Assembly: GCF_041296385.1 (NCBI RefSeq)
Contig: NC_091017.1
Coordinates: 13,138,001-13,202,000 of the forward strand
Length of the DNA: 64,000 nt
Source of the DNA: Aphelocoma coerulescens
Lineage: Eukaryota; Chordata; Aves; Passeriformes; Corvidae
Direction of reading: 5' to 3'
Shown here: piece by piece, positions 11,543 to 37,940 of the stretch
Layout: every line of letters starts with the position of its first letter
How positions within the stretch are numbered: the stretch's first letter is position 1
Notes under the pieces: model-generated
What the model was told of the DNA's origin: nothing
The model's input: only the letters and a program-made list of their open reading frames with translations
The model's database searches: none
Position numbers and translations under genes: made by a program

Positions 11543-12167
11543 TGTTCCGGTTTGGCCAAATTTAGAAATATATCCTCTGAGAGAAGGCACAACCACCCCT
11601 TCCCCCCCCAGGTTCAGGAAAAAATAAATTTTCCTCGAAGGAAAGTGAAGGAGATAAAACTATTTATTTACCAAACACACGGGAAAAGGAAAATAATGCT
11701 AAATAATAAAATCTTTTGCTGTGGAGGAAAAACCTGGGAAAATGTTAGAGTCCTCCCTTTGGTCTCCTCAGAGCTGGGGCTTGGGCCAGGGCCAGGGAAA
11801 GTCCTCCTGATGTGCTCTGAGGTTGAAAGCAGTTAGAAAAGGGAGAAAATCCAGAATTCCAGGGAAGGAAAAACAAAGTCCAACTCTCAGTCTCTCTCTG
11901 GAGAACAAGAAACTGAAACAACTGGCCAAAAGCTGACTGGAAAGCAGCAAGCTGGGTGCTTCCTCGCTCCCCTGCCACAGCTGGGGAAAAAAAACCCCTG
12001 CTATCTCTGTGTGACCTTGAACAAGATGCAAACTGCTTTGAAAAAGTTTTGCTCAGTTTTTTCCTTCCTCCTCTCAGGCTCAGTTTAGAGGCTTAGAAAA
12101 GCACAAAAATTAATTTCTGGGCATAGGCAGCGATACTGGATACACATCATAAGGTCACCCCAAGACA
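11543..12167 (-). repeat. ERVL 3' LTR (625 bp)
   Basis: The plus strand starts TGTTCCGGTTTGG and ends CCCCAAGACA, so on the sense strand the LTR runs TGTCTTGGGG...CCGGAACA. It matches the LTR at 18019-18645 over its full length with 6 substitutions and one 2-base difference in an A run. Long frames inside it occur in both LTRs and are not genes. Confidence 0.92.
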
Positions 12168-12182
12168 TTCCACCCCTTATCC
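12168..12182 (-). other. Polypurine tract of the ERVL
   Basis: On the sense strand, GGATAAGGGGTGGAA lies directly upstream of the 3' LTR. A purine-rich tract at this position primes plus-strand DNA synthesis. It has one T inside and one near the start. Confidence 0.65.
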
Positions 12183-12236
12183 CATATTGTTGGCTCAATG
12201 CCCAAACTAAGATATTCTAATTCTACACACACATTA

Positions 12237-12244
<8 letters not shown>

Positions 12245-12278
<34 letters not shown>
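12245..12278. repeat. (AT)17 microsatellite inside the provirus
   Basis: Seventeen AT units are flanked by short AC runs, between the end of pol and the polypurine tract. This is where env or dUTPase would sit in other elements. Confidence 0.95.
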
Positions 12279-12285
<7 letters not shown>

Positions 12286-12356
12286 GCTATATACGAACAG
12301 TGACAGTGACAATCAGCAAGCAAGGGTATAAAAGCATTTCACACTACAGGTGGCTC

Positions 12357-13177
12357 TCATACAACAATCAGATCTCCTTGCGGTACACAACGTGTTGTTC
12401 CATCTTTCTGCGTTACCGACCATGTGCAACCAGATCCCTGAGCAAAGACAACCCCACAGATGGGTTTGTCTGTACTCGAGGCAGAATTTATCCACACAGT
12501 CTTTCCTAACAGACCTCTGACATGCACCACTGGAACCTTATCTCCATCTGTTGTTTGTAGGGATTCAGATTGGGCTGGACCAGCTCTATTGGTGGAACCT
12601 TGGGTGTTAACTAACCAGGTGGCCTTTGCTAGATGCTATTCCCAATTTTTGAAAGTTCCCCCACCTAGTGGCTTCAAAGTGGTTTTCAACGATCCATTGC
12701 ACTGTTCCACTTTGCCTGCAGCTGGTGCATGGTAAGGGATGTGGTACACCCACTCAATGCCATGTTCTCTAGCCCAGGTACTAATAAGGCTATTCTTAAA
12801 ATGAATCCCATTGTCAGATTCAATTCTCTCAGGGGTACCATGCCTCCAAAGGCCCAGGAAGGTGTTTTGGGCTGTAGCGTGAGGCACAGGGTAGGTCTCC
12901 AGCCATCCTGTGATGGCTTCTACCATTGTGAGCACATAGCGCTTGCCTTGGCGGGCTTGAGGCACTGTGATGTAATCAATCTGCCAGGCCTCCCCATACT
13001 TGTATTTGGACCATCGCCCACCATACCACAGGGGCTTCACCCGCTTGGCCTGCTTGATTGCAGCGCATGTCTCACAATCATGGATAACCTGGGAGATACT
13101 GTCCATGGTTAGATCCACCCCTCGATCTCGTGCCCACTTATAGGTGGTATCTCTGCCTTGATGACCTAGGCATCATG
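12357..13177 (-). pseudogene. ERVL integrase, broken by an amber
   Basis: Integrase joins the viral DNA to the host chromosome. Reading leftward from about 13177, a zinc-finger tail with HDCETC (the CxxC pair) is followed by the catalytic core: first Asp in QIDYITVP, second in SDNGIHF, Glu in GKVEQCNG, with exactly 35 residues between the last two (D-D-35-E). The catalytic residues are therefore intact. At 12636-12638 the frame has TAG, just after the core. The same frame then stays open, with plausible C-terminal-domain text, to a TGA at 12357-12359. A frame change separates this piece from the RNase H end at 13184-13383. The first codon of the open run is not AUG, as expected inside pol. 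Confidence 0.85.
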
Positions 13178-13183
13178 GGCCCA

Positions 13184-13383
13184 TCAAGCTAGGAACAACT
13201 CTCCCTTCTGTTTCCAGTCCAAGTCTACCTGTGACACTTCTATCTTTGCAGCCTGATCTACCTGCTTGTTGTTTTGGTGTTCTTCATTAGCCCTACTCTT
13301 GGGGACATGGGCATCTACATGGCGGACTTTCACAACCAGCTTTCTTACTCGGGCAGCGATGTTTTTCCACTCTTCAGCAGTGC
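13184..13383 (-). pseudogene. ERVL RNase H C-terminal piece (downstream of nested LTR)
   Basis: This is the last part of RNase H after the inserted LTR. The minus-strand reading has KVRHVDAHVPKSRANEEH and NNKQVDQAAK, the His and Asp region that ends retroviral RNase H domains. It is in the frame that follows from the upstream RNase H half once one LTR plus one 6-bp duplication (457 bp) is discounted, so the two halves were continuous before the LTR arrived. It ends in a stop at 13184-13186, and the integrase continues in another frame. Confidence 0.8.
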
Positions 13384-13831
13384 TGACTTTTGCGGGGGAA
13401 GACATGCAGACAATCAATGTGATTGATAATGCAAGCTTCGTTTATTAGCAATACAGAGGCACTTATATAGTATCAGTATATATGCTTGTCAGTTCTTGAT
13501 TGGTTTAAGCTTACAAAAGTGCATTCTTACTTCTACATAATTGGGTTAGATAAAAGACTACATTTGGCAAGCTTCTATTATTTATGTTTTGTCTTGAGAG
13601 ATCAAAGATCTTCCTCCCTTCTCATGGTCAGCACATCTTTATCAGAACAGCACTGTACCTCCTAAAAACTCCCTTTTGGTTCTCAGGCCTGTTTTTCACG
13701 CAGGCATTTTCTCATGGAGGCTTTTTCTCATGCAGGCCTTTGCTTGCAGGCCTTTGCCTGTACAGTTCTGTTATTAATTTGTATCCTTTATCAATAATCC
13801 ATGTCCCTGATCCTCTAACCATTCTCCAACA
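13381..13831 (-). mobile_element. Solo LTR (451 bp) nested in the ERVL RNase H
   Basis: Plus-strand ends are TGCTGACTTT and CTCCAACA. The perfect 6-bp duplication CAGCAG lies at 13375-13380 and 13832-13837. Sense is minus, because only that strand gives CCAAT, TATA and AATAAA in order. A second copy with its own duplication is at 31909-32343. No internal retroviral sequence remains, so this is a solo LTR left by recombination between two LTRs. The 6-bp duplication fits a class II (alpha/beta-like) avian retrovirus and not the 5-bp ERVL host element. It must be younger than the ERVL insertion. Confidence 0.92.
13441..13503 (-). promoter_or_regulatory. LTR promoter: CCAAT box, TATA box and poly(A) signal
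   Basis: On the minus strand a CCAAT box (13499-13503, AACCAATCAAG context) precedes a TATA box (CTATATAAGTG, about 13460-13470) by about 30 bases. AATAAA (13441-13446) follows, as in compact alpharetrovirus-type LTRs where TATA and poly(A) signal are close. The second copy has the same elements at 32028-32032, about 31990-31999 and 31970-31975. The CCAAT context is also a Y-box core (TGATTGG on the plus strand). Confidence 0.7.
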
Positions 13832-14522
13832 CAGCAGCCCAGATTGGTTTTCCCCTATGCTGCCAATTAGCTTTTTCCCACTTTTCTAGCCATTCCCACA
13901 GAGCATTGGCTACCATCCATGAATCAGTGTAGAGGTAGAGCTTTGGCCACTTTTCTCTTTCAGCTATATCCAGAGCTAGTTGAACAGCTTTGAGTTCAGA
14001 GAGTTGGCTTGATCCACCTTCTCCTTCAGTAGCTTCTGCAACCCATCATGTGGGACTCCATACGGCTGCTTTCCACTTTCGTTTCATCCCTACGATGCTA
14101 CATGAACCGTTGGTGAAAAGAGCGTAGCGTTTGTCTTCTGATGGCAGTTGGTTGTGCGGTGGAGCTTCTTCAGCGCGTGTCACTTGTTCTTCTTCATCAG
14201 CGAGACCAAAGTTTTCACCTTCAGGCCAGTTTGTGATTATTTCCAAAATCCCAGGGTGATTCAGTTTTCCAATACAGGCGCGCCGTGTGATGAGAGCAAT
14301 CCATTTGCTCCATGTGGCATTGGTGGCATGGTGGGTAGAGGGAACCTCTGCTTTGAACATCCACCCCAGCACTGGTAGTCCGGGTGCCAGGAGGAGTTGT
14401 GCCTCAGTGCCAATTACCTCTGAGGCGGCTTGGATTCCTTCATAGGCTGCCAAGATTTCCTTCTCTGTTGGGCTGTAATTGGCTTCGGACCCTCTGTAGC
14501 TTTGGCTCCAAAATCCCAGTGG
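13832..14522 (-). pseudogene. ERVL RT connection and RNase H N-terminal part, inactivated
   Basis: This continues the RT frame after the TGA at 14523-14525. It holds the RT-RNase H connection and the first RNase H motifs. The expected TDGS signature reads TNGS (Asn codon at 14109-14111), so the first catalytic Asp of RNase H is lost. A TGA at 14046-14048 follows, after which LYLYTDSW (about 13915-13945) preserves the later catalytic Asp. The domain is then cut at 13837 by the nested solo LTR. RNase H would remove the RNA template during reverse transcription. This copy is dead by substitution, two stops and an insertion. Confidence 0.85.
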
Positions 14523-15400
14523 TCAACCTTGAATCTCACCAGACACCTTCTGCCAGAGGCTCCAGGACAGACCATGGCTCCTGGCTGCAGAGTAGAGCAC
14601 ATTCTTCACTTCTGGTCCTTTCCTGACTGGGCCAAGGGCTACAGCATGAGCGATTTCCTGCTTGATCTGGGCGAAGGCTTGTTGCTGTTCAGGGCCCCAG
14701 TGGAAATCATTCTTCTTGCGGGTAACCAGGTAGAGAGGGCTCACGACCTGGCTGTACTCAGGAATGTGCATCCTCCAAAAGCCTATGGCACCTAGGAAAG
14801 CTTGTGTTTCCTTCTTGTTGGTTGGTGGAGACATTGCTGTGATCTTATTGATGACCTCAGTGGGAATCTGACGCCGTCCATCTTGCCATTTCACTCCCAG
14901 GAACTGGATCTCTTGAGCAGGTCCCTTGACTTTGCTCTTCTTGATGGCAAAATCAGCTTCCAGGAGAATCCGGATAACTTTCTCTCCTCTCTCAAACACT
15001 TCTGTTGCAGTGTTCCCCCACACAATGATGTCATCAATGTACTGCAAATGTTCTGGAGCCTCACTCTTTTCTAGAGCAGTTTGGATCAGCCGATGGCAGA
15101 TGATGGGACTGTGCTTCCACGCCTGGGGCAGTCGGTTCCAGGTGTATTGCACACCCCTCCAGGTGAAGGCAAACTGAGGCCTGCACTCTGCTGCCAGAGG
15201 AATGGAGAAAAATGCATTGGCAATGTCAATAGTGGCGTACCACTTTTCTGCTTTGGACTCCAGCTCGTACTGGAGCTTCAACCTGTCCGGTACAGCAGCG
15301 CTCAATGGTGGAGTCACTTCATTCAAGGCAGGATAGTCCACAGTCAATCTCCATTCTCCTTCAGATTTGCGCACAGGCCAAATGGGGCTGTTGAAGGGTG
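14523..15400 (-). pseudogene. ERVL reverse transcriptase
   Basis: This RNA-directed DNA polymerase core copies the viral RNA to DNA. The frame starts without AUG, as expected within pol. Visible in order: LTVDYPALNEV, motif A TIDIANAFFS (Asp near residue 50 counted from 15374), a template-grip region with FTWRGVQYTWNRLPQ, and the catalytic QYIDDIIVWG (YIDD at 15030-15041). Thumb text follows with FLGVKW and FLGAIGFWR. The core is 283 codons long and intact to the TGA at 14523-14525. It lies one frame away from the protease (minus 1 relative to it). The join falls near 15400-15410, where I see no classical slippery heptamer, so a one-base indel is more likely than programmed frameshifting. Confidence 0.9.
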
Positions 15401-15970
15401 AGTGGGTCTTTTGCTGACCACCCCTTGGCTCTCCAGCTCACGGATCATCTTGTGAATGGGAATCACAGCATCTCGAGTTGTCCGGTACTGTCGGCGATGC
15501 ACTGTTGAGGTAGCAATTGGTACTCTTTGTTCTTCCACCTTCAGAAGGCCTACTGCAGATGGGTTCTCTGATAGCCCAGTGTTCAATTGCTTAATGCCCT
15601 CTGTCTCCACAGCAGCTATTCCAAAAGCCCACTTGAATCCCTTTGGGTCTCTAAAATACCCCTTCTGTAGGAAATCTATGCCCAAAATGCACGGGGCCTC
15701 TGGGCCAGTCACAATGAGATGTTTCTTCCACTCATTTCCAGTCAGGCTCACCTCAGCTTCCACCAAAGTCAAATTTTGTGATCCACCTGTTACACCAGAA
15801 ATAGAAACAGATTCTACCCCCACATGCTGTGATGGAATTATTGTACACTGCGCACCAGTGTCAACCAAGGCATCATATTTTTGTGGTTCTGATGTACCAG
15901 GCCAACGAATCCACACAGTCCAAAAAACACAGTTTTCCCTGACCTCTACCTGGCTAGAGGCAGGGCCCCT
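15344..15970 (-). pseudogene. ERVL protease
   Basis: This is a retroviral aspartic protease, which cuts Gag and Pol. The active site is LVDTGAQCTIIP (about 15848-15862), and ILGIDFL about 55 residues later matches the conserved Gly-containing C-terminal helix region. The frame is open from a TAG at 15971-15973 to a stop at 15344. It is in the same frame as gag but separated from it by TGA (16145) and TAG (15971). It overlaps the RT frame by about 30-60 bases. Seen alone, the protease is intact. In context it is cut off from gag by two stops. Confidence 0.85.
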
Positions 15971-15973
15971 CTA

Positions 15974-16144
15974 TGCCTGGTTATCCTTCTTTCCCTGGTC
16001 CTGCATCTTAGAGGTTCCTTCATGGGAATCGGACATGCCATCGTCTTTCCCATCATTTCCAGCAGTTTGGCTACAGGCAACTGGAGCTACTTCCTTTTTG
16101 GTGGAGCTTCCTTTCTGAAACTTGCGCTCCTTCAATTCACGCAC
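15974..16144 (-). pseudogene. ERVL gag-protease linker
   Basis: This open piece lies between the TGA at 16145-16147 and the TAG at 15971-15973, in the same frame as gag and protease. It is hydrophilic, rich in Ser, Lys, Gly and Asp, with no domain I recognise. I see no CCHC zinc knuckle here or in the preceding gag piece, so a classical nucleocapsid is not evident. Confidence 0.5.
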
Positions 16145-16801
16145 TCATGCTACCAGAGCAGAAGTGGGTTGTCCACCCCACCTCTTCGTGTCTTCCCCAC
16201 TGTCACAGAGGAATTTCCACAGCTCACTCCGTGGGATGTTCCTTCTCTCTGGGGAACGTCTGCAGAGGAGGCACTCTTTAATCTCCTGGTGATTCTTCTC
16301 CATCCTATCTTCCATTTTCTGCATACGTGTTTCCACAGCTGCGATTCTTGCATGTGTTGGACCATGCACAGAGTCTGCATATGCTTGGAGCTTCACTGCC
16401 ATATCCCGCACAGTCTCATTTGCACCGTAGTCCGGTTTCATTATTGCTAAAGCAGAAGCGTATTCTTGTGGCCCAAGTTGTGTAAGTTTTCGCCACATAT
16501 ATGGAATAACTCTGGCCCGGTCTGGACTCCTGAATCCTGGGTCATTTGTGAAGACAACTTCTACCACCCCTAGTTCTCTCAGGCGTTGGATCCCTTGTTC
16601 TATGGTCTTCCACAGGGTTTGCTGCATGTAGAGATCATCTCCGCACATATATCTTTCAATTACACCTGTCAAGACCCGTCTCCAGAGACTGGCAGAGTCA
16701 GCCCCCCTTATCATCGCTTGGTCGATAACTGGATCACGTGACAGGGATCCCAAATGCCTCGCTTCAGCACTGTCCAGCATCACATCATCACCTGCCGCAT
16801 C
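16145..16801 (-). pseudogene. ERVL gag, capsid-like C-terminal piece
   Basis: This is a 212-codon frame directly after the amber at 16802-16804, in the same frame as the N-terminal gag piece. It contains helical capsid-like text (IEQGIQRLRELGVVEVVF, then MWRKLTQLGPQEYASALAIM) and a charged heptad stretch, AVETRMQKMEDRMEK, that could form a coiled coil. It has no CCHC knuckle. It ends with TGA at 16145-16147. Its role would be capsid assembly. The assignment follows from its position between the gag N-terminus and protease and not from a strong motif. Confidence 0.7.
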
Positions 16802-17911
16802 CTAAATACGGACCATCCTACTTATTATGGATTCATCAGTCCGTCGGGTGTAATCCTTTCTTAGACTGTGAAGGTCCTTTATGGACATGGACTCAGTAAT
16901 GATTTCTGTGCCTGAGTCAGTTGGTGGTTTTGAGGTTCCTTCCCCTGCATCTTTTGAGGTTCCTTCCCCTGCATGATCCTCATCTTTCACTGGGCGATCA
17001 GTTTTGAGTGTGTGTTTTTTCCTCGTGACAGGAGCCACTGTCAATGGCTTAGACTCTCCATCTGGTTTGAGCTTGCTGTCTGGTTTATCTGCAGCCTGAG
17101 TGATTGGGGTGTCTGCAGGCTTTGCTGATTTATCTTCCCGCCTTTCTACCTTTACCTGCTGCAGTGTGCGATAGGCATATGCCAAAGCCCAACATATTGC
17201 AAGGAGCTTGTTCTCATTGGAATTGTCATTGTATTTCTCTTTCAGATAGTTTGCCACCTCAGCTGGTTTCTGAACTTGTTCAGGGGGAAAATTGCAAACC
17301 ATTGGGTCAGAGAACTTCTTCAAGATTTGGCCCATATCCTCCCATTCCCCACACCACTCAGGATGTTCCACCTCTGGGTCAGGTGTCTCGGCAGTCGCCC
17401 GGGAAATCTGAGCTCTCATTCTAGACCAGCTGCGAACCACATAGAGGAAGCTTACCGGATAAAATACCAGAAATACCAGGAAGGTGCTCTCTTTAACATC
17501 CAGGGGAAACTGAACACTCTCAAAAGATAACCTATCAAATTTAAAGAGAAGGGAAACACCGTCTCCTCCTCCTCTAACAATCTGGGTGCAATTACTAATA
17601 AATTCCCAAAACAGGCTACCGAAGCTAGGACTGGGGTTAGGACGGAGAAACCACTTATCATACACACCTCGAACAGCTGCCTGTACCTCTGTCAAATTCT
17701 TATAAATCATTATTACTGAGCACAGCAAAATAGAAATCAGAATTTGTCTCCCTGCTCTGTAAAATTTACATATCAGGGACAAGATTGGAGCAAGTTGTGG
17801 ATAGGCAAACAACCCCAGGGACCAAAAAAACACTAGTACCTCAATGAAGCCTAAGGACCAGAAAGACATGAGTACATCGAGCCAGAGAGACATTATGAAC
17901 TCAACCAGCAT
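16802..17911 (-). pseudogene. ERVL gag N-terminal piece with membrane-like start
   Basis: The first AUG in a strong context (GTCACCATGC) is at 17909-17911, which gives 369 codons to the TAG at 16802-16804. The open frame begins 13 codons earlier without AUG. The N-terminal 160 residues are unusually hydrophobic. Segments near 2-47, 56-70 (QILISILLCSVIMIY) and 143-159 (STFLVFLVFYPVSFLYVV) could be membrane helices. The remainder is hydrophilic, with a repeated EGTSK-type unit near residues 315-330 (tandem DNA repeat around 16935-16975). It sits where matrix and early capsid are expected. The amber may be a mutation or a readthrough stop. Confidence 0.75.
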
Positions 17912-17993
17912 GGTGACTACTTTACCCCAACACAGAATAAGTAAATTCAAACCAAAATGTAATTAGCACAGGTTTTTTTCACTTTCCTTTGAG

Positions 17994-18011
17994 CCATGCA
18001 GTTGGGCACCA
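17994..18011 (-). other. ERVL primer-binding site
   Basis: The sense strand reads TGGTGCCCAACTGCATGG, starting 7 bases inside the 5' LTR. It begins with TGG, as needed to pair with a tRNA CCA end. The first 11 bases resemble the lysine-tRNA type sites (TGGCGCCCAAC) with one change. The tRNA identity is tentative. Confidence 0.55.
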
Positions 18012-18018
18012 CTAAATT

Positions 18019-18645
18019 TGTTCCGGTTTGGCCAAATTTAGAAATATATCCTCTGAGAGAAGGCACAACCACCCCTTCCCCCCCCAGGTTCAGGAAAAAA
18101 TAAATTTTCCTCGAAGGAAAGTGAAGGAGATAAAACTATTTATTTACCAAACACACGGGAAAAGGAAAATAATGCTAAATAATAAAATCTTTTGCTGTGG
18201 AGGAAAAACCTGGGAAAATGTTAGAGTCCTCCCTTTGGTCTCCTCAGAGCTGGGGCTTGGGCCAGGGCCAGGGAAAGTCCTCCTGATGTGCTCTGAGGTT
18301 GAAAGCAGTTAGAAAAGGGAGAAAATCCAGAATTCCAGGGAAGGAAAAACAAAGTCCAACTCTCAGTCTCTCTCTGGAGAACAAGAAACTGAAACAACTG
18401 GCCAAAAGCTGACTGGAAAGCAGCAAGCCGGGTGCTTCCTCGCTCCCCTGCCACAGCTGGGGAAAAAAAAAACCCCTGCTATCTCTGTGTGACCTTGAAC
18501 AAGATGCAAACTGCTTTGAAAAAGTTTTGCTCAGTTTTTTCCTTCCCCCTCTCAGGCTCAGTTTAGAGGCATAGAAAAGCACAAAAATTAATTTCTGGGC
18601 ATAGGCAGCGATATGGGATACACATCATAAGATCACCCCAAGACA
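18019..18645 (-). repeat. ERVL 5' LTR (627 bp)
   Basis: This is the partner of the LTR at 11543-12167, with the same termini (TGTTCCGG...AAGACA on plus). The six substitutions are all in the right-hand third, and the A run is 2 bases longer. Being upstream on the sense strand, it would drive the provirus. TTCTG follows at 18646-18650. Confidence 0.92.
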
Positions 18646-18650
18646 TTCTG

Positions 18651-35701: not shown

Positions 35702-35707
35702 ATGCAC
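35702..35707. repeat. Target-site duplication ATGCAC, left copy
   Basis: ATGCAC lies directly before the element at 35702-35707 and directly after it at 37935-37940. The perfect 6-bp match shows that the two LTRs and everything between them arrived as one insertion. Confidence 0.93.
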
Positions 35708-36000
35708 TGTTACAGTGGGGACACTGTAACACGCCTATATCAAACCAGGAGTCCCGTGGAAAAGAAATATATATGGACGGATTCTTGATAGATGTTTCAG
35801 AGAGATGTTTATTTCTCCAGCCGCATGGCCGGGGCTCTGCCGAGGAACTGTCACAGTCACGGGACCTGAGGGTCCTTTGCCCACGCAGGAAACCACAAAC
35901 CAACCAAAGGGGAACGAGACTGACCAGGGGCAGGGAAACCCCGTGCCTCCCCTCAGGGCCCCTCTCCCAGGGCTACATGGCAGGGGGAGGGACCCCAACA
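35708..36000 (-). repeat. 3' LTR of the cold-shock element (293 bp)
   Basis: On plus it runs TGTTACAGTGGGG...GACCCCAACA, so sense is TGTTGGGGTC...CTGTAACA. AATAAA on the sense strand lies at 35808-35813. I see no clear TATA box upstream of it, so the promoter may be TATA-less. It differs from the 5' LTR at 5 positions, for example CACGCAGG here against CATGCAGG. Confidence 0.93.
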
Positions 36001-36026
36001 TCTCACCCGTTATATTTTAATAAAAG
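36001..36026 (-). other. Polypurine-like tract and AT-rich lead-in
   Basis: On the sense strand CGGGTGAGA abuts the 3' LTR after an AT-rich run. A short purine tract here would prime plus-strand synthesis. It is shorter and less pure than usual. Confidence 0.45.
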
Positions 36027-36218
36027 GAGAATGAAGACAGCTGGGTAAACATAACAAGAACAGTTTCAAAACAAAGCAAGCCACCCTCCTGAGTCTTTAA
36101 ATGTCCAAACAGATTCTGTGGAACATTTTAGGGCTGACAGAAGTGAGACAGGACTCTCTGAGCATGCTTTGTGGGGAAACTGAGGCAGGAGAGGGTTTAA
36201 TTTCTTCCCTCTCCCTTT

Positions 36219-36845
36219 TCATCCCCCACTCGGCATTGGAAAGGGATTTTTGGGGAAACAATTGGCAAAGGCATGGTTTTGTGAGGGAAACCATGGATGA
36301 AAAGGCAGATTGGGAATACACTGGGGGTAATAAGACATAGGATAAAAGGGAAAGGTGGGATTAGGAAAGGGAGACTGTAGGGGGGGCTTACAATGGAGAT
36401 ATTGTCTAACATGACTACGATTTTTAGCATATATACTGCCTTTTACAGGAACACCATCAGGCCCAGTGACCTGCGATGCTTGTAACCCTTTTCTACCTTG
36501 TATAATTTTGAATTCCACCACCTCTCCATCTCCCGAGCTTGGGATGTATTTTTCAGGGTTATTCTTTTTAATAGCAGTTCTATGCACGAATATGTCTTGC
36601 TGGCTATCATATCTTGTTATAAAACCATAATTTTGCTTAACATTATACCATTTTACTATCCCTAAGATCTTAGCTACTATGATATTTTCCTTTTTCTGAG
36701 TGGCTGCTGTTTTCTGTCTCGCTGTGTCTTTGCTCTCTCTTTCGGTCACTCCCGTGTTGGAATTGTCAGAGCTGCTGGTGCCTGTGTGCTCTTCCCAGGG
36801 TCGCGTTTGGGGCCGCGCGGGCCGGGCCGGGCCAGGCCGCACCGC
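36219..36845 (-). CDS. Y-box / cold-shock domain protein, captured by the LTR element
   Basis: Cold-shock domains of the Y-box family bind single-stranded RNA and DNA, package mRNA and act at promoters. This frame is open for 209 codons from an in-frame TGA (36846-36848) to TGA at 36219-36221. The domain occupies about 36432-36686 and is complete and intronless. It has KWYNVKQNYGFI (RNP1), DIFVHRTAI (RNP2), KKNNPEKY, GDGEVVEF and VTGPDGVPVKGS, all diagnostic of vertebrate Y-box proteins and not of bacterial Csp. Upstream lie about 52 Ser/Thr/Lys-rich residues. Downstream is a 57-residue Pro/Phe/Tyr-rich tail (PFPNPTFPFYPMSYYP) in place of the basic/acidic repeats of YBX proteins. No AUG lies in frame before the domain, so expression needs splicing, a minus-1 shift from the 37234 frame, or a non-AUG start. 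The open domain argues for recent or retained coding. Confidence 0.82.
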   Translation of the reverse strand, partial: AVRPGPARPARPQTRPWEEHTGTSSSDNSNTGVTERESKDTARQKTAATQKKENIIVAKILGIVKWYNVKQNYGFITRYDSQQDIFVHRTAIKKNNPEKYIPSSGDGEVVEFKIIQGRKGLQASQVTGPDGVPVKGSIYAKNRSHVRQYLHCKPPLQSPFPNPTFPFYPMSYYPQCIPNLPFHPWFPSQNHAFANCFPKNPFPMPSGG

Positions 36846-37234
36846 TCAGTTCTCCGTGCGTCACCTCTTCTGGTTGCAGCTTCAGGCGCTGCATCTCGGC
36901 CAGGCCCCTGAGCGATGACCCCCTCGTGCCCTGCTCCAGCGCGCGTTTCGGCTGGGCACGGCTCTGCTCCACTGCTGCCAGCCGCCGCCCGTGCGCCGCC
37001 CCTCTCGGTCGGGCGTTCACGGGGCTCACTCCAGCATGCACTGCACGGGGCCGGGTGGGCACTGCCGGGTCCCGCCGCTCCTGCTACACCTCTCTTTCTG
37101 CCGACACTGTGGCTTGAGTGGCTCCGCCTGCGCGCGGGAACTGCTTCGCTGCTGCTCACAGAGCACTCGGTGCACGTGGCCTGGGTCGCACAGTCCCTGA
37201 GCCAGGCTTCCCTTATCCAGGACACAGCTGGCAT
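36746..37234 (-). other. GC-rich block with overlapping open frame (162 codons)
   Basis: About 36780-37200 is strikingly GC-rich compared with the AT-rich sequence on both sides. One frame starts at an AUG (37232-37234), runs 162 codons rich in Ala, Arg, Gly and Pro, and ends at 36746 inside the cold-shock frame, which lies at minus 1. Another frame contains AEMQRLKLQPEEV (about 36855-36897). Y-box genes have GC-rich first exons, so this may be the captured 5' end of the host mRNA. Whether either frame is translated is unknown, as GC-rich DNA often stays open by chance. Confidence 0.4.
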
Positions 37235-37521
37235 TGCTCAACAGTCTCGGTAATTAAATAATATTCACGAAAATATTCTTCCATCGGCATATATTTTGAC
37301 TCAAATATTAACTGTGTCCAAACGGTCTTCCAAAAGCCCTTGGTAAGAATTAAATCCCAAGAAACATAGAAAAAGTTCTTAAACAACCATGCCAGGAAGT
37401 GTTTCAGTTCTTTCTGAGCTTGAATCAAGCAAAAATTTACAAATTGTTGTTCAAGAATCATTTTAAGATAAATGTCCATATGCTGCTCCGAGAACCAAGA
37501 CTCTTCCCACGGTTCCTCCAT
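37213..37521 (-). CDS. Unrecognised 102-codon frame, first AUG frame of the element
   Basis: This frame starts at the AUG at 37519-37521 (context CTAAACTATGG, with G at +4), about 120 bases inside the 5' LTR, where gag would start. The product begins MEEPWEESWFSEQHM and is rich in Trp, Phe, Leu and acidic residues. It looks helical and amphipathic (FCLIQAQKELKHFLAWLFKN, WKTVWTQLIF) and ends EQCQLCPG. I see no matrix signature, myristoylation glycine, zinc knuckle or signal peptide. Its position suggests a gag N-terminal remnant, perhaps kept for packaging, or a leader to the captured gene. The function is unknown. Confidence 0.45.
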   Translation of the reverse strand: MEEPWEESWFSEQHMDIYLKMILEQQFVNFCLIQAQKELKHFLAWLFKNFFYVSWDLILTKGFWKTVWTQLIFESKYMPMEEYFREYYLITETVEQCQLCPG

Positions 37522-37581
37522 AGTTTAGATATGGAATAGCAAAACAAAACCAAGAAGAGGAATCCAAAGTTTCTAGGGTTT

Positions 37582-37587
37582 ACTCAC
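37582..37587 (-). promoter_or_regulatory. Possible splice donor
   Basis: The sense strand reads TGT|GTGAGTAAA about 55 bases after the 5' LTR, a strong match to a 5' splice site. Retroviruses commonly splice from the leader to express downstream genes. An acceptor before the cold-shock frame is not obvious. Confidence 0.4.
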
Positions 37588-37621
37588 ACAAATCAGTCGC
37601 TTAGGGATTGGGGATCGTTCT

Positions 37622-37639
37622 GCTCACAATTCTCCACCA
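37622..37639 (-). other. Candidate primer-binding site
   Basis: TGGTGGAGAATTGTGAGC starts two bases inside the 5' LTR and begins with TGG, as a tRNA primer site should. I cannot match it to a common retroviral primer tRNA. Confidence 0.4.
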
Positions 37640-37641
37640 TT

Positions 37642-37934
37642 TGTTGCAGTGGGGATACTGTAACACGCCTGTATCAAACCAGGAGTCCCGTGGAAAAGAA
37701 ATATATATGGACGGATTCTTGATAGATGTTTCAGAGAGATGTTTATTTCTCCAGCCGCATGGCCGGGGCTCTGCCGAGGAACTGTCACAGTCACGGGACC
37801 TGAGGGTCCTTTGCCCATGCAGGAAACCACAAACCAACCAAAGGGGAACGAGGCTGACCAGGGGCAGGGAAACCCCGTGCCTCCCCTCAGGGCCCCTCTC
37901 CCAGGGCTACATGGCAGGGGGAGGGACCCCAACA
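37642..37934 (-). repeat. 5' LTR of the cold-shock element (293 bp)
   Basis: This is the partner of 35708-36000, identical in length with 5 transitions. AATAAA on the sense strand is at 37742-37747. It is followed by ATGCAC at 37935-37940, the right target duplication. Confidence 0.93.
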
Positions 37935-37940
37935 ATGCAC

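What the first reader, a model, noticed from the sequence alone, without database searches (positions are those of the whole stretch)
35708..37934. LTR retroelement that carries a complete Y-box cold-shock domain gene and no retroviral enzymes
Seen: two 293-bp LTRs, perfect 6-bp duplication ATGCAC, no pol text, and an intronless cold-shock domain (KWYNVKQNYGFI, DIFVHRTAI) on the sense strand between them. Known: YBX proteins are cellular RNA-binding factors whose genes have introns, and retroviruses can take up spliced host RNAs. Inferred: this is a transduced host gene in a non-autonomous retroelement. It could alter packaging, stability or translation of retroviral or host RNA. I do not recognise a described avian element of this kind.
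Basis: partly seen in the sequence, partly recalled or inferred. Interest (0 to 1): 0.93.

Follow-up and report, generated by a model that had tools for sequence, protein, structure and literature searches.

The report
Bird jumping element carrying cold-shock gene
A short virus-like jumping element in a bird genome, present in many copies, carries no copying enzymes but carries an RNA-binding cold-shock domain derived from the host's Y-box genes, fused to a protein part of unknown kind and kept in working order by selection.

Summary
The window holds a 2,227-bp LTR element on the minus strand: LTRs 288/293 identical, 6-bp target duplication, no enzyme match, an intronless Y-box cold-shock domain (54/90 identical to zebrafish YB-1). 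The same genome holds a family: a cold-shock pattern gives 868 matches, a 3' pattern 810 (reversed controls 0). The 9 two-LTR copies first read lie in nine different, perfect 6-bp duplications. The domain is not a separate gene: in intact copies it is the 3' part of one frame of about 435-460 codons (N-terminal domain of unknown fold, linker, cold-shock domain, Pro/Phe tail). The window copy is broken in the linker. A second subfamily has the same layout, LTR pairs differing at 0-3 sites, and about 63% identity in the domain. Domain and N-terminal part show selection on protein (dN/dS 0.28-0.38; slid frames 0.63-1.45); the linker does not. Changes shared by four or more copies are more often synonymous than single-copy ones. 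Best mechanism (inferred): a non-autonomous element whose protein binds its own RNA, nucleocapsid-like, and rides a helper's enzymes. No helper was found. The listed searches showed no description in print.

The parts
37935..37940 (.). target-site duplication ATGCAC, 5' side of the element
37642..37934 (-). 5' LTR, 293 bp, TGTTGGGG...ACA
37622..37639 (-). primer-binding site position (TGGTGGAGAATTGTGAGC). Partial match to the 3' end of tRNA-Ala (tRNA letters recalled); one subfamily B copy matches over 18 bases
   Evidence: sequence; B copies
37579..37587 (-). splice-donor-like GTGAGTAAA in the leader (low score in a rough matrix); a like GTGAGTAAA stands in the B leader
37213..37521 (-). orfA, 102 codons: N-terminal domain of the fusion protein, no significant Pfam or PDB match
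36687..37212 (-). GC-rich (70%) linker, Ala/Pro/Arg-rich; its frame is broken in this copy; no protein-level constraint seen in the 49 codons tested
36417..36686 (-). Y-box-type cold-shock domain, 90 codons aligned to YB-1
36219..36416 (-). Pro/Phe/Tyr-rich tail of the fusion protein with stop
36001..36218 (-). 3' non-coding stretch, 203 of 218 bases identical to a subfamily B copy; ends in a short purine run before the 3' LTR
35708..36000 (-). 3' LTR, 293 bp
35702..35707 (.). target-site duplication ATGCAC, 3' side of the element

Best explanation
SHOWN: it is one copy of a large, recently moving, non-autonomous LTR retroelement family of a bird. Its only evident protein is a fusion of a ~100-residue N-terminal domain, an Ala/Pro/Arg linker, a Y-box cold-shock domain derived from a spliced host-type Y-box sequence, and a Pro/Phe/Tyr tail; the N-terminal domain and the cold-shock domain are kept by selection. 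INFERRED: the LTR makes an RNA primed by tRNA-Ala. The fusion protein binds that same RNA through the cold-shock domain, as a stand-in for a nucleocapsid or YB-1: it protects the RNA, keeps it from translation and hands it, through the N-terminal domain, to particles of a helper retrovirus that supplies reverse transcriptase and integrase. Selection holds the protein because each RNA profits mainly from the protein made from itself. In the window copy the frame is broken, so this copy can no longer make the fusion protein in the ordinary way.
For: Family and mobility: 9 of 9 copies with own perfect 6-bp duplications; 17 of 17 lone LTRs (13 distinct sites) are solo LTRs with 6-bp duplications, 15 at the exact edge and 2 after moving an edge by one base; LTR pairs differ at 0-3 sites in the 5 of 9 B copies whose pairs could be counted, K2P 0.010-0.076 in 9 A copies; 868 and 810 pattern matches, control 0. 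One frame: 61 of the 150 best A-type hits have at least 430 codons open without a stop, 8 of 150 have a stop in the matched stretch; 113 of 150 hits to YB-1, of B type, have at least 449. Selection: dN/dS of the domain 0.38 among 13 copies taken by LTR (slid frames 0.81, 0.71), 0.30 among 25 (1.08, 0.63), 0.28 between subfamilies (0.93, 1.45); orfA 0.34, 0.31, 0.32. Changes shared by 4 or more copies are more synonymous than single-copy ones in the domain (11:5 against 15:45, p 0.002) and in orfA (9:3 against 17:47, p 0.002). Positions W65, F74, F85, H87 are kept in 20 of 20 A copies used (of 25) and 9 of 9 B copies. [quoted passage not shown]
Against: The 49 linker codons tested show no constraint in the coding frame (dN/dS 1.19; slid frames 0.59, 0.37; 9 copies). 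89 of 150 A-type hits lack an unbroken frame of 430 codons. No helper with this LTR was found: in the capped lists (40 and 41 hits) LTR pairs are 1.7-2.0 kb apart, one interrupted copy apart, and 8 of 8 further 3'-stretch places checked carry the cold-shock domain. orfA matches no matrix or Gag family, so a Gag link is a guess. The CAUC motif bound by YB-1 is not enriched in the element RNA (6 seen, 6.2 expected). With changes shared by only 2 or more copies the contrast is p 0.026 in the domain and 0.18 in orfA, and the tail shows none. No expression, binding or particle data exist here.
Confidence: 0.5

Rival explanations
1. The protein works on the host, not on its own RNA: it competes with or poisons YB-1 granules or germline silencing (piRNA) complexes and so lets element RNA escape.
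For: RNA-contact residues as in YB-1; high copy number. The Y-box tail is missing, which would suit a decoy.
Against: A trans benefit would be shared with broken copies and other elements, so selection on each copy's own frame is harder to explain; yet dN/dS is about 0.3.
Confidence: 0.2
2. The N-terminal domain is the active part: a capsid-assembly adaptor that mixes into helper particles, with the cold-shock domain a general RNA tether.
For: orfA is as constrained as the domain (dN/dS 0.31-0.34) and is kept in subfamily B (44% identical over 61 residues).
Against: No Gag-like match by profile; the single-sequence fold is poor (pLDDT 57), and a Foldseek search with it against viral models gave 0 matches.
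Confidence: 0.2
3. Passenger: the domain was captured once and is carried along without use.
For: The window copy and several others are broken; the linker shows no constraint.
Against: dN/dS about 0.3 in the coding frame only; A-B pS 0.54 against pN 0.23; 174 of 300 scored hits have long open frames. Neutral drift to the same identity left the 158 codons stop-free in about 3% of simulations.
Confidence: 0.04
4. Ordinary processed Y-box pseudogene that fell into an unrelated LTR pair.
For: Intronless, Y-box-like.
Against: Present in the 9 independent two-LTR copies first read, in subfamily B and in 8 of 8 further places; no own tail or duplication seen.
Confidence: 0.01

Closest known systems
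Non-autonomous LTR elements with a captured host gene (e.g. maize Bs1; recalled)
   Same: LTR pair, target duplication, no own enzymes, spliced host-type sequence inside
   Different: Here many copies, recent movement, two diverged subfamilies and a protein frame with parts under selection
Acute transforming retroviruses (v-onc capture; recalled)
   Same: Spliced host sequence inside a retroviral unit, perhaps joined to a viral N-terminus
   Different: Not an oncogene; endogenous and long-lived; the insert is an RNA-binding domain; N-terminus not shown to be Gag
Y-box proteins YBX1 and YBX3
   Same: Cold-shock domain alignable without gaps, RNA-contact residues kept
   Different: No Y-box basic/acidic tail; foreign N-terminal domain; 30-40% of domain residues changed
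Endogenous retroviruses with 6-bp target duplications (ERVK/beta type; recalled rule)
   Same: TG...CA LTRs, 6-bp duplication, leader with a splice-donor-like site, primer-binding site position
   Different: No gag-pro-pol-env recognised; class cannot be set without reverse transcriptase; probable tRNA-Ala primer

Membership tests
LTR retroelement (non-autonomous) | Paired LTRs with TG...CA ends | tested here: met
   (two of nine copies, L021 and L027, depart by one base near one end)
LTR retroelement (non-autonomous) | Target-site duplication of fixed length at independent sites | tested here: met
   6 bp in 9 of 9 A copies; 6 of 7 B copies examined of 9 read, the seventh 5 bp; 17 of 17 solo LTRs at 13 sites
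LTR retroelement (non-autonomous) | Primer-binding site next to the 5' LTR | tested here: inconclusive
   18-base tRNA-Ala fit in one B copy, but the tRNA letters are recalled; degenerate in the window copy
LTR retroelement (non-autonomous) | Lacks reverse transcriptase and integrase | tested here: met
   internal length 1,641 bp
ERVK/beta-type endogenous retrovirus | Reverse transcriptase groups with betaretroviruses | not testable with these tools
   no pol in the element and no helper found
Retroviral capture of a host gene | Insert lacks introns that the host gene has | tested here: met
   two host genes (L076 YBX1-like, L075 YBX3-like; names by similarity) are split inside the domain, AG|exon|GT; the element is not
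Retroviral capture of a host gene | Insert descends from one capture | tested here: inconclusive
   11 majority residues shared by A and B but absent from YBX1 and YBX2 fit one capture; no tree with bird Y-box genes was built
Y-box protein family | Cold-shock domain of Y-box type | tested here: met
Y-box protein family | Long C-terminal tail of alternating basic and acidic clusters (recalled) | tested here: not met
   tail is Pro/Phe/Tyr-rich, about 60 residues
Retroviral Gag | Recognisable matrix, capsid or zinc-knuckle domain | tested here: not met
   no Gag match for orfA or for a B linker
Processed pseudogene | Own poly(A) tail and flanking duplication | tested here: not met
   none seen in the sequence; same insert in the 9 two-LTR copies first read

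The most novel reading that the evidence does not exclude
A retroelement lineage has replaced the retroviral nucleocapsid by a captured Y-box cold-shock domain: its single fusion protein packages and chaperones its own RNA in cis, so a parasite without enzymes evolves as a coding element in its own right.
Probability: 0.35. Interest if true: 0.93.

Novelty: new variant of a known kind. Interest (0 to 1): 0.86.

Why it matters
Non-autonomous LTR elements are usually taken to be non-coding riders (recalled). Here one keeps, over a synonymous distance near one substitution per site and through very recent insertions, a captured host RNA-binding domain fused to an unknown domain. That makes an old question testable: what a parasite without enzymes gains by making a protein. 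It also links to the known use of YB-1 by retroviruses and gives natural variants of a Y-box domain shaped by retroelement life. Y-box gene counts in bird annotations may be inflated by such copies (not tested).

Tried and rejected
Nested processed pseudogene: rejected. Ribosomal frameshift from orfA to the domain in the window copy: I read the overlaps by eye and saw no slippery site in the right frame; the intact frames of other copies made it needless. Splicing to supply a start codon in the window copy: only weak acceptors upstream of the domain. YB-1 motif enrichment in element RNA: none. Y-box DNA motif: no enrichment (CCAAT 4 against 3.0 expected, ATTGG 0 against 2.8). Rfam: nothing at gathering scores in the window; two chance-level pestivirus hits at E 0.09 and 0.41. 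Structure predictions from single sequences were poor and are not used, apart from one empty Foldseek search. Relatives in IMG/VR and in prokaryote contigs: none. Helper search through LTR pairs: none at 5-9 kb spacing among the LTR hits listed. orfA protein against the genome never got an answer. Pol or gag families were not searched for in the genome.

Bias and dropped rows: the 12 copies added were chosen for open frames, so the 25- and 27-copy values lean low; the 13-copy (domain) and 15-copy (orfA) sets came through LTR hits only. Codons with gaps, N or stops were dropped in all dN/dS counts. In one search, 20 of 25 A copies entered the domain test and 21 of 27 the orfA test; no slid-frame control was run for orfA there. 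The 150-hit lists are the best-scoring hits, not a census. Copies on duplicated stretches were not removed from the pattern counts. The Fisher tests treat changes as independent. orfA synonymous divergence between A and B is near saturation (pS 0.66). The smallest domain set (9 copies) gave 0.32.
Full report
Observation. The window holds, on the minus strand, an element of 2,227 bp from 35708 to 37934. Its LTRs are 293 bp, 288 identical, the five differences all transitions, and ATGCAC stands on both sides. Between the LTRs are 1,641 bp with no enzyme match in the three sense ORFs scanned. A frame of 208 codons (36845-36219) holds a cold-shock domain: Pfam PF00313, E 6e-19; best solved relatives are Y-box proteins, zebrafish YB-1 at E 7.5e-35; 54 of 90 residues identical without gaps. 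None of 1000 shuffles of the stretch gave so long a frame.

A family, not a single event. The window's own genome is 1.33 Gb in 660 contigs; the window is C5:13138001-13202000. Forty LTR hits were scored of 3,843 candidates. I fetched 32 stretches around them. Nine copies with both LTRs, the window's included, have the same order of parts; one of them (L027) has an internal deletion. Each of the nine lies in its own perfect 6-bp duplication, all nine different. Five further copies are complete or cut (L042, L044, L045, L048, L050; L048 lacks much of the domain), and one is interrupted by other DNA (L037 with L052). The 17 lone LTRs, at 13 distinct sites, are all solo LTRs with 6-bp duplications, 15 at the exact edge and 2 after moving an edge by one base. 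LTR pairs differ by K2P 0.010-0.076, about 1.6-20 million years at the assumed rates of 3.3e-9 and 1.9e-9 per site and year. Whole-genome patterns with up to 2 mismatches give 868 matches in the domain and 810 in the 3' stretch, 0 for the reversed controls; these are matches, not copies checked one by one. Eight of eight 3'-stretch places outside the earlier lists, chosen from the 100 listed, also carry the domain.

One fusion protein. In 4 of the nine copies orfA and the domain are in the same frame; one of them is open from orfA through the domain, with its tail out of frame. Of the 150 best genome hits to the domain (3,896 candidates), 61 have at least 430 open codons without a stop, 51 of them outside a tandem array; 89 do not; 8 have a stop in the matched stretch. 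The family protein is thus about 434-439 residues: orfA, a linker from 70% GC DNA, the domain, and a Pro/Phe tail. In the window copy the linker frame is broken, which explains the missing start.

A second subfamily. A search with zebrafish YB-1 gave a different set of 150 hits (of 1,648 candidates), 68-71% identical to YB-1, none with stops, 113 with at least 449 open codons. Nine copies were read. LTRs are about 87% like the window's (255 of 293 identical), the orfA homologue is 44% identical over 61 residues, the domain 63-64% identical. Of seven copies whose edges were examined, six have a perfect 6-bp duplication, the seventh 5 bp. LTR pairs differ at 0-3 sites in the five copies countable without gaps. 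A separate LTR search (40 scored of 3,232 candidates) shows pairs about 2 kb apart, one pair 100% identical. The site after the 5' LTR in L072 reads TGGTGGAGAATGCGGGCA, which fits the tRNA-Ala 3' end as I recall it; most other B copies have one base more in it.

Capture. Two host genes were found by a 31-residue piece at 100% over 30 residues; by their next exon they look like YBX1 (L076) and YBX3 (L075) (names by similarity and recall). Both have an intron inside the domain, with AG|exon|GT borders. The elements have none there. Eleven majority residues are shared by both subfamilies but not by YBX1 or YBX2, not all of them fixed; this fits one capture from a spliced Y-box RNA, but no tree was built. 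In the 30-codon exon a B copy differs from host YBX1 at 5, 2 and 18 first, second and third positions; the window copy at 9, 5 and 17.

Selection. Among 13 copies reached through LTR hits, dN/dS of the domain is 0.38, and 0.81 and 0.71 when the frame is slid; orfA (15 copies) 0.34 against 0.94 and 0.97; the tail 0.46 against 1.81 and 0.78. With 12 more copies chosen for open frames it is 0.30 for the domain (slid 1.08, 0.63) and 0.31 for orfA (0.65, 1.24). Between subfamilies it is 0.28 for the domain (slid 0.93, 1.45) and 0.32 for orfA, with synonymous sites near saturation in orfA. Against this, 49 linker codons in nine copies gave 1.19 in the coding frame and 0.59 and 0.37 in slid frames, so the linker shows no constraint as protein. 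Changes found in one copy only fall evenly on the three codon positions (19, 23, 18 in the domain); changes shared by four or more copies fall mostly on the third (1, 4, 11). Synonymous to non-synonymous: 11:5 against 15:45 in the domain and 9:3 against 17:47 in orfA, p 0.002 each. With changes shared by two or more copies the contrast is p 0.026 and 0.18 in the larger set and 0.012 and 0.14 in the smaller. For the tail it is not significant. The likely reading is that selection worked in the lineages that moved and stopped after insertion. W65, F74, F85 and H87 are kept in 20 of 20 A copies used and 9 of 9 B copies; E121 became Q. That four conserved aromatic side chains bind the CAUC core is from a review (PMC7825780, passages); the residue numbers are recalled.

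Mechanism. A non-autonomous element keeps a protein only if the protein favours the RNA that encoded it, or that RNA's near kin. The domain is of a kind known to bind single-stranded RNA. [quoted passage not shown] the primary paper is not held). YB-1 is also reported as a cofactor of HIV-1 (PMC6040738, search listing only). I therefore think it most likely that the fusion protein coats and delivers its own RNA to a helper's particles. Shown: family, fusion frame, intronless host-type domain, selection on domain and orfA, recent movement. Inferred: RNA binding, cis preference, helper, particle entry.

Against it. No helper was found in the capped LTR lists, and pol or gag families were not searched for in the genome. 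orfA matches no Gag family. The YB-1 motif is not enriched. The linker is not constrained. Nothing is known here about expression.

An oddity. The 218-base 3' stretch is 203/218 identical between a copy of A and one of B and the LTR 255/293, while synonymous sites differ at more than half. Either this stretch is a strongly constrained RNA signal, or A and B exchange their ends by recombination.

Novelty. Ten searches of the open-access library showed no description of such an element in the titles and abstract starts listed. One search found 8 papers holding 'cold-shock domain' and 'endogenous retrovir', none on such an element by title. One paper on chicken endogenous retroviruses was read in its first part (PMC2329609) and one was searched for terms (PMC5006616), without a hit for cold shock in the latter. 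Repbase, Dfam, most subscription journals and other bird genomes were not searchable, so an existing repeat name cannot be excluded.

Noticed in passing
window 11543-18648, minus strand: Another provirus with LTR-like repeats of about 630 bp (98.7% identical) and pieces matching retroviral protease, reverse transcriptase and integrase core; the element in question gave no blastn match to it.
   Followed up: partly
G000:C4:114686278-114703938: Ten domain hits spaced about 1,910 bp apart with frames of 453 codons (one 465): a tandem array of LTR-plus-internal units, probably from unequal crossing-over between LTRs.
   Followed up: no
window 36001-36218 and its like in L065: 3' non-coding stretch far more conserved between subfamilies than synonymous sites; candidate RNA export or packaging signal, or a trace of recombination.
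   Followed up: partly
G000 contigs C34, C35, C37, C38: About 1-2 of the 150 best A-type hits per Mb against 0.01-0.16 on the large contigs of known length; these may be W-chromosome pieces. The 150 hits are not a census.
   Followed up: no
G000:C35 near 0.39, 2.13 and 3.93 Mb (L028, L031, L030) and 0.26, 2.00 and 3.80 Mb (L034, L033, L032): Solo LTRs recur in stretches of about 5.9 kb that are over 99.9% identical in the three pairs compared, as if a block of C35 were present three times.
   Followed up: partly
G000:C3 near 26.5-29.7 Mb and 33.5-36.8 Mb: Several copies recur at a constant offset of 7,055,340 bases (e.g. 27978010 and 35033350), a large duplication or an assembly duplicate; the genome counts are slightly inflated by it.
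   Followed up: no
L066 (G000:C8:3472198): A B-like copy with about 320 bp of other DNA between linker and domain.
   Followed up: no
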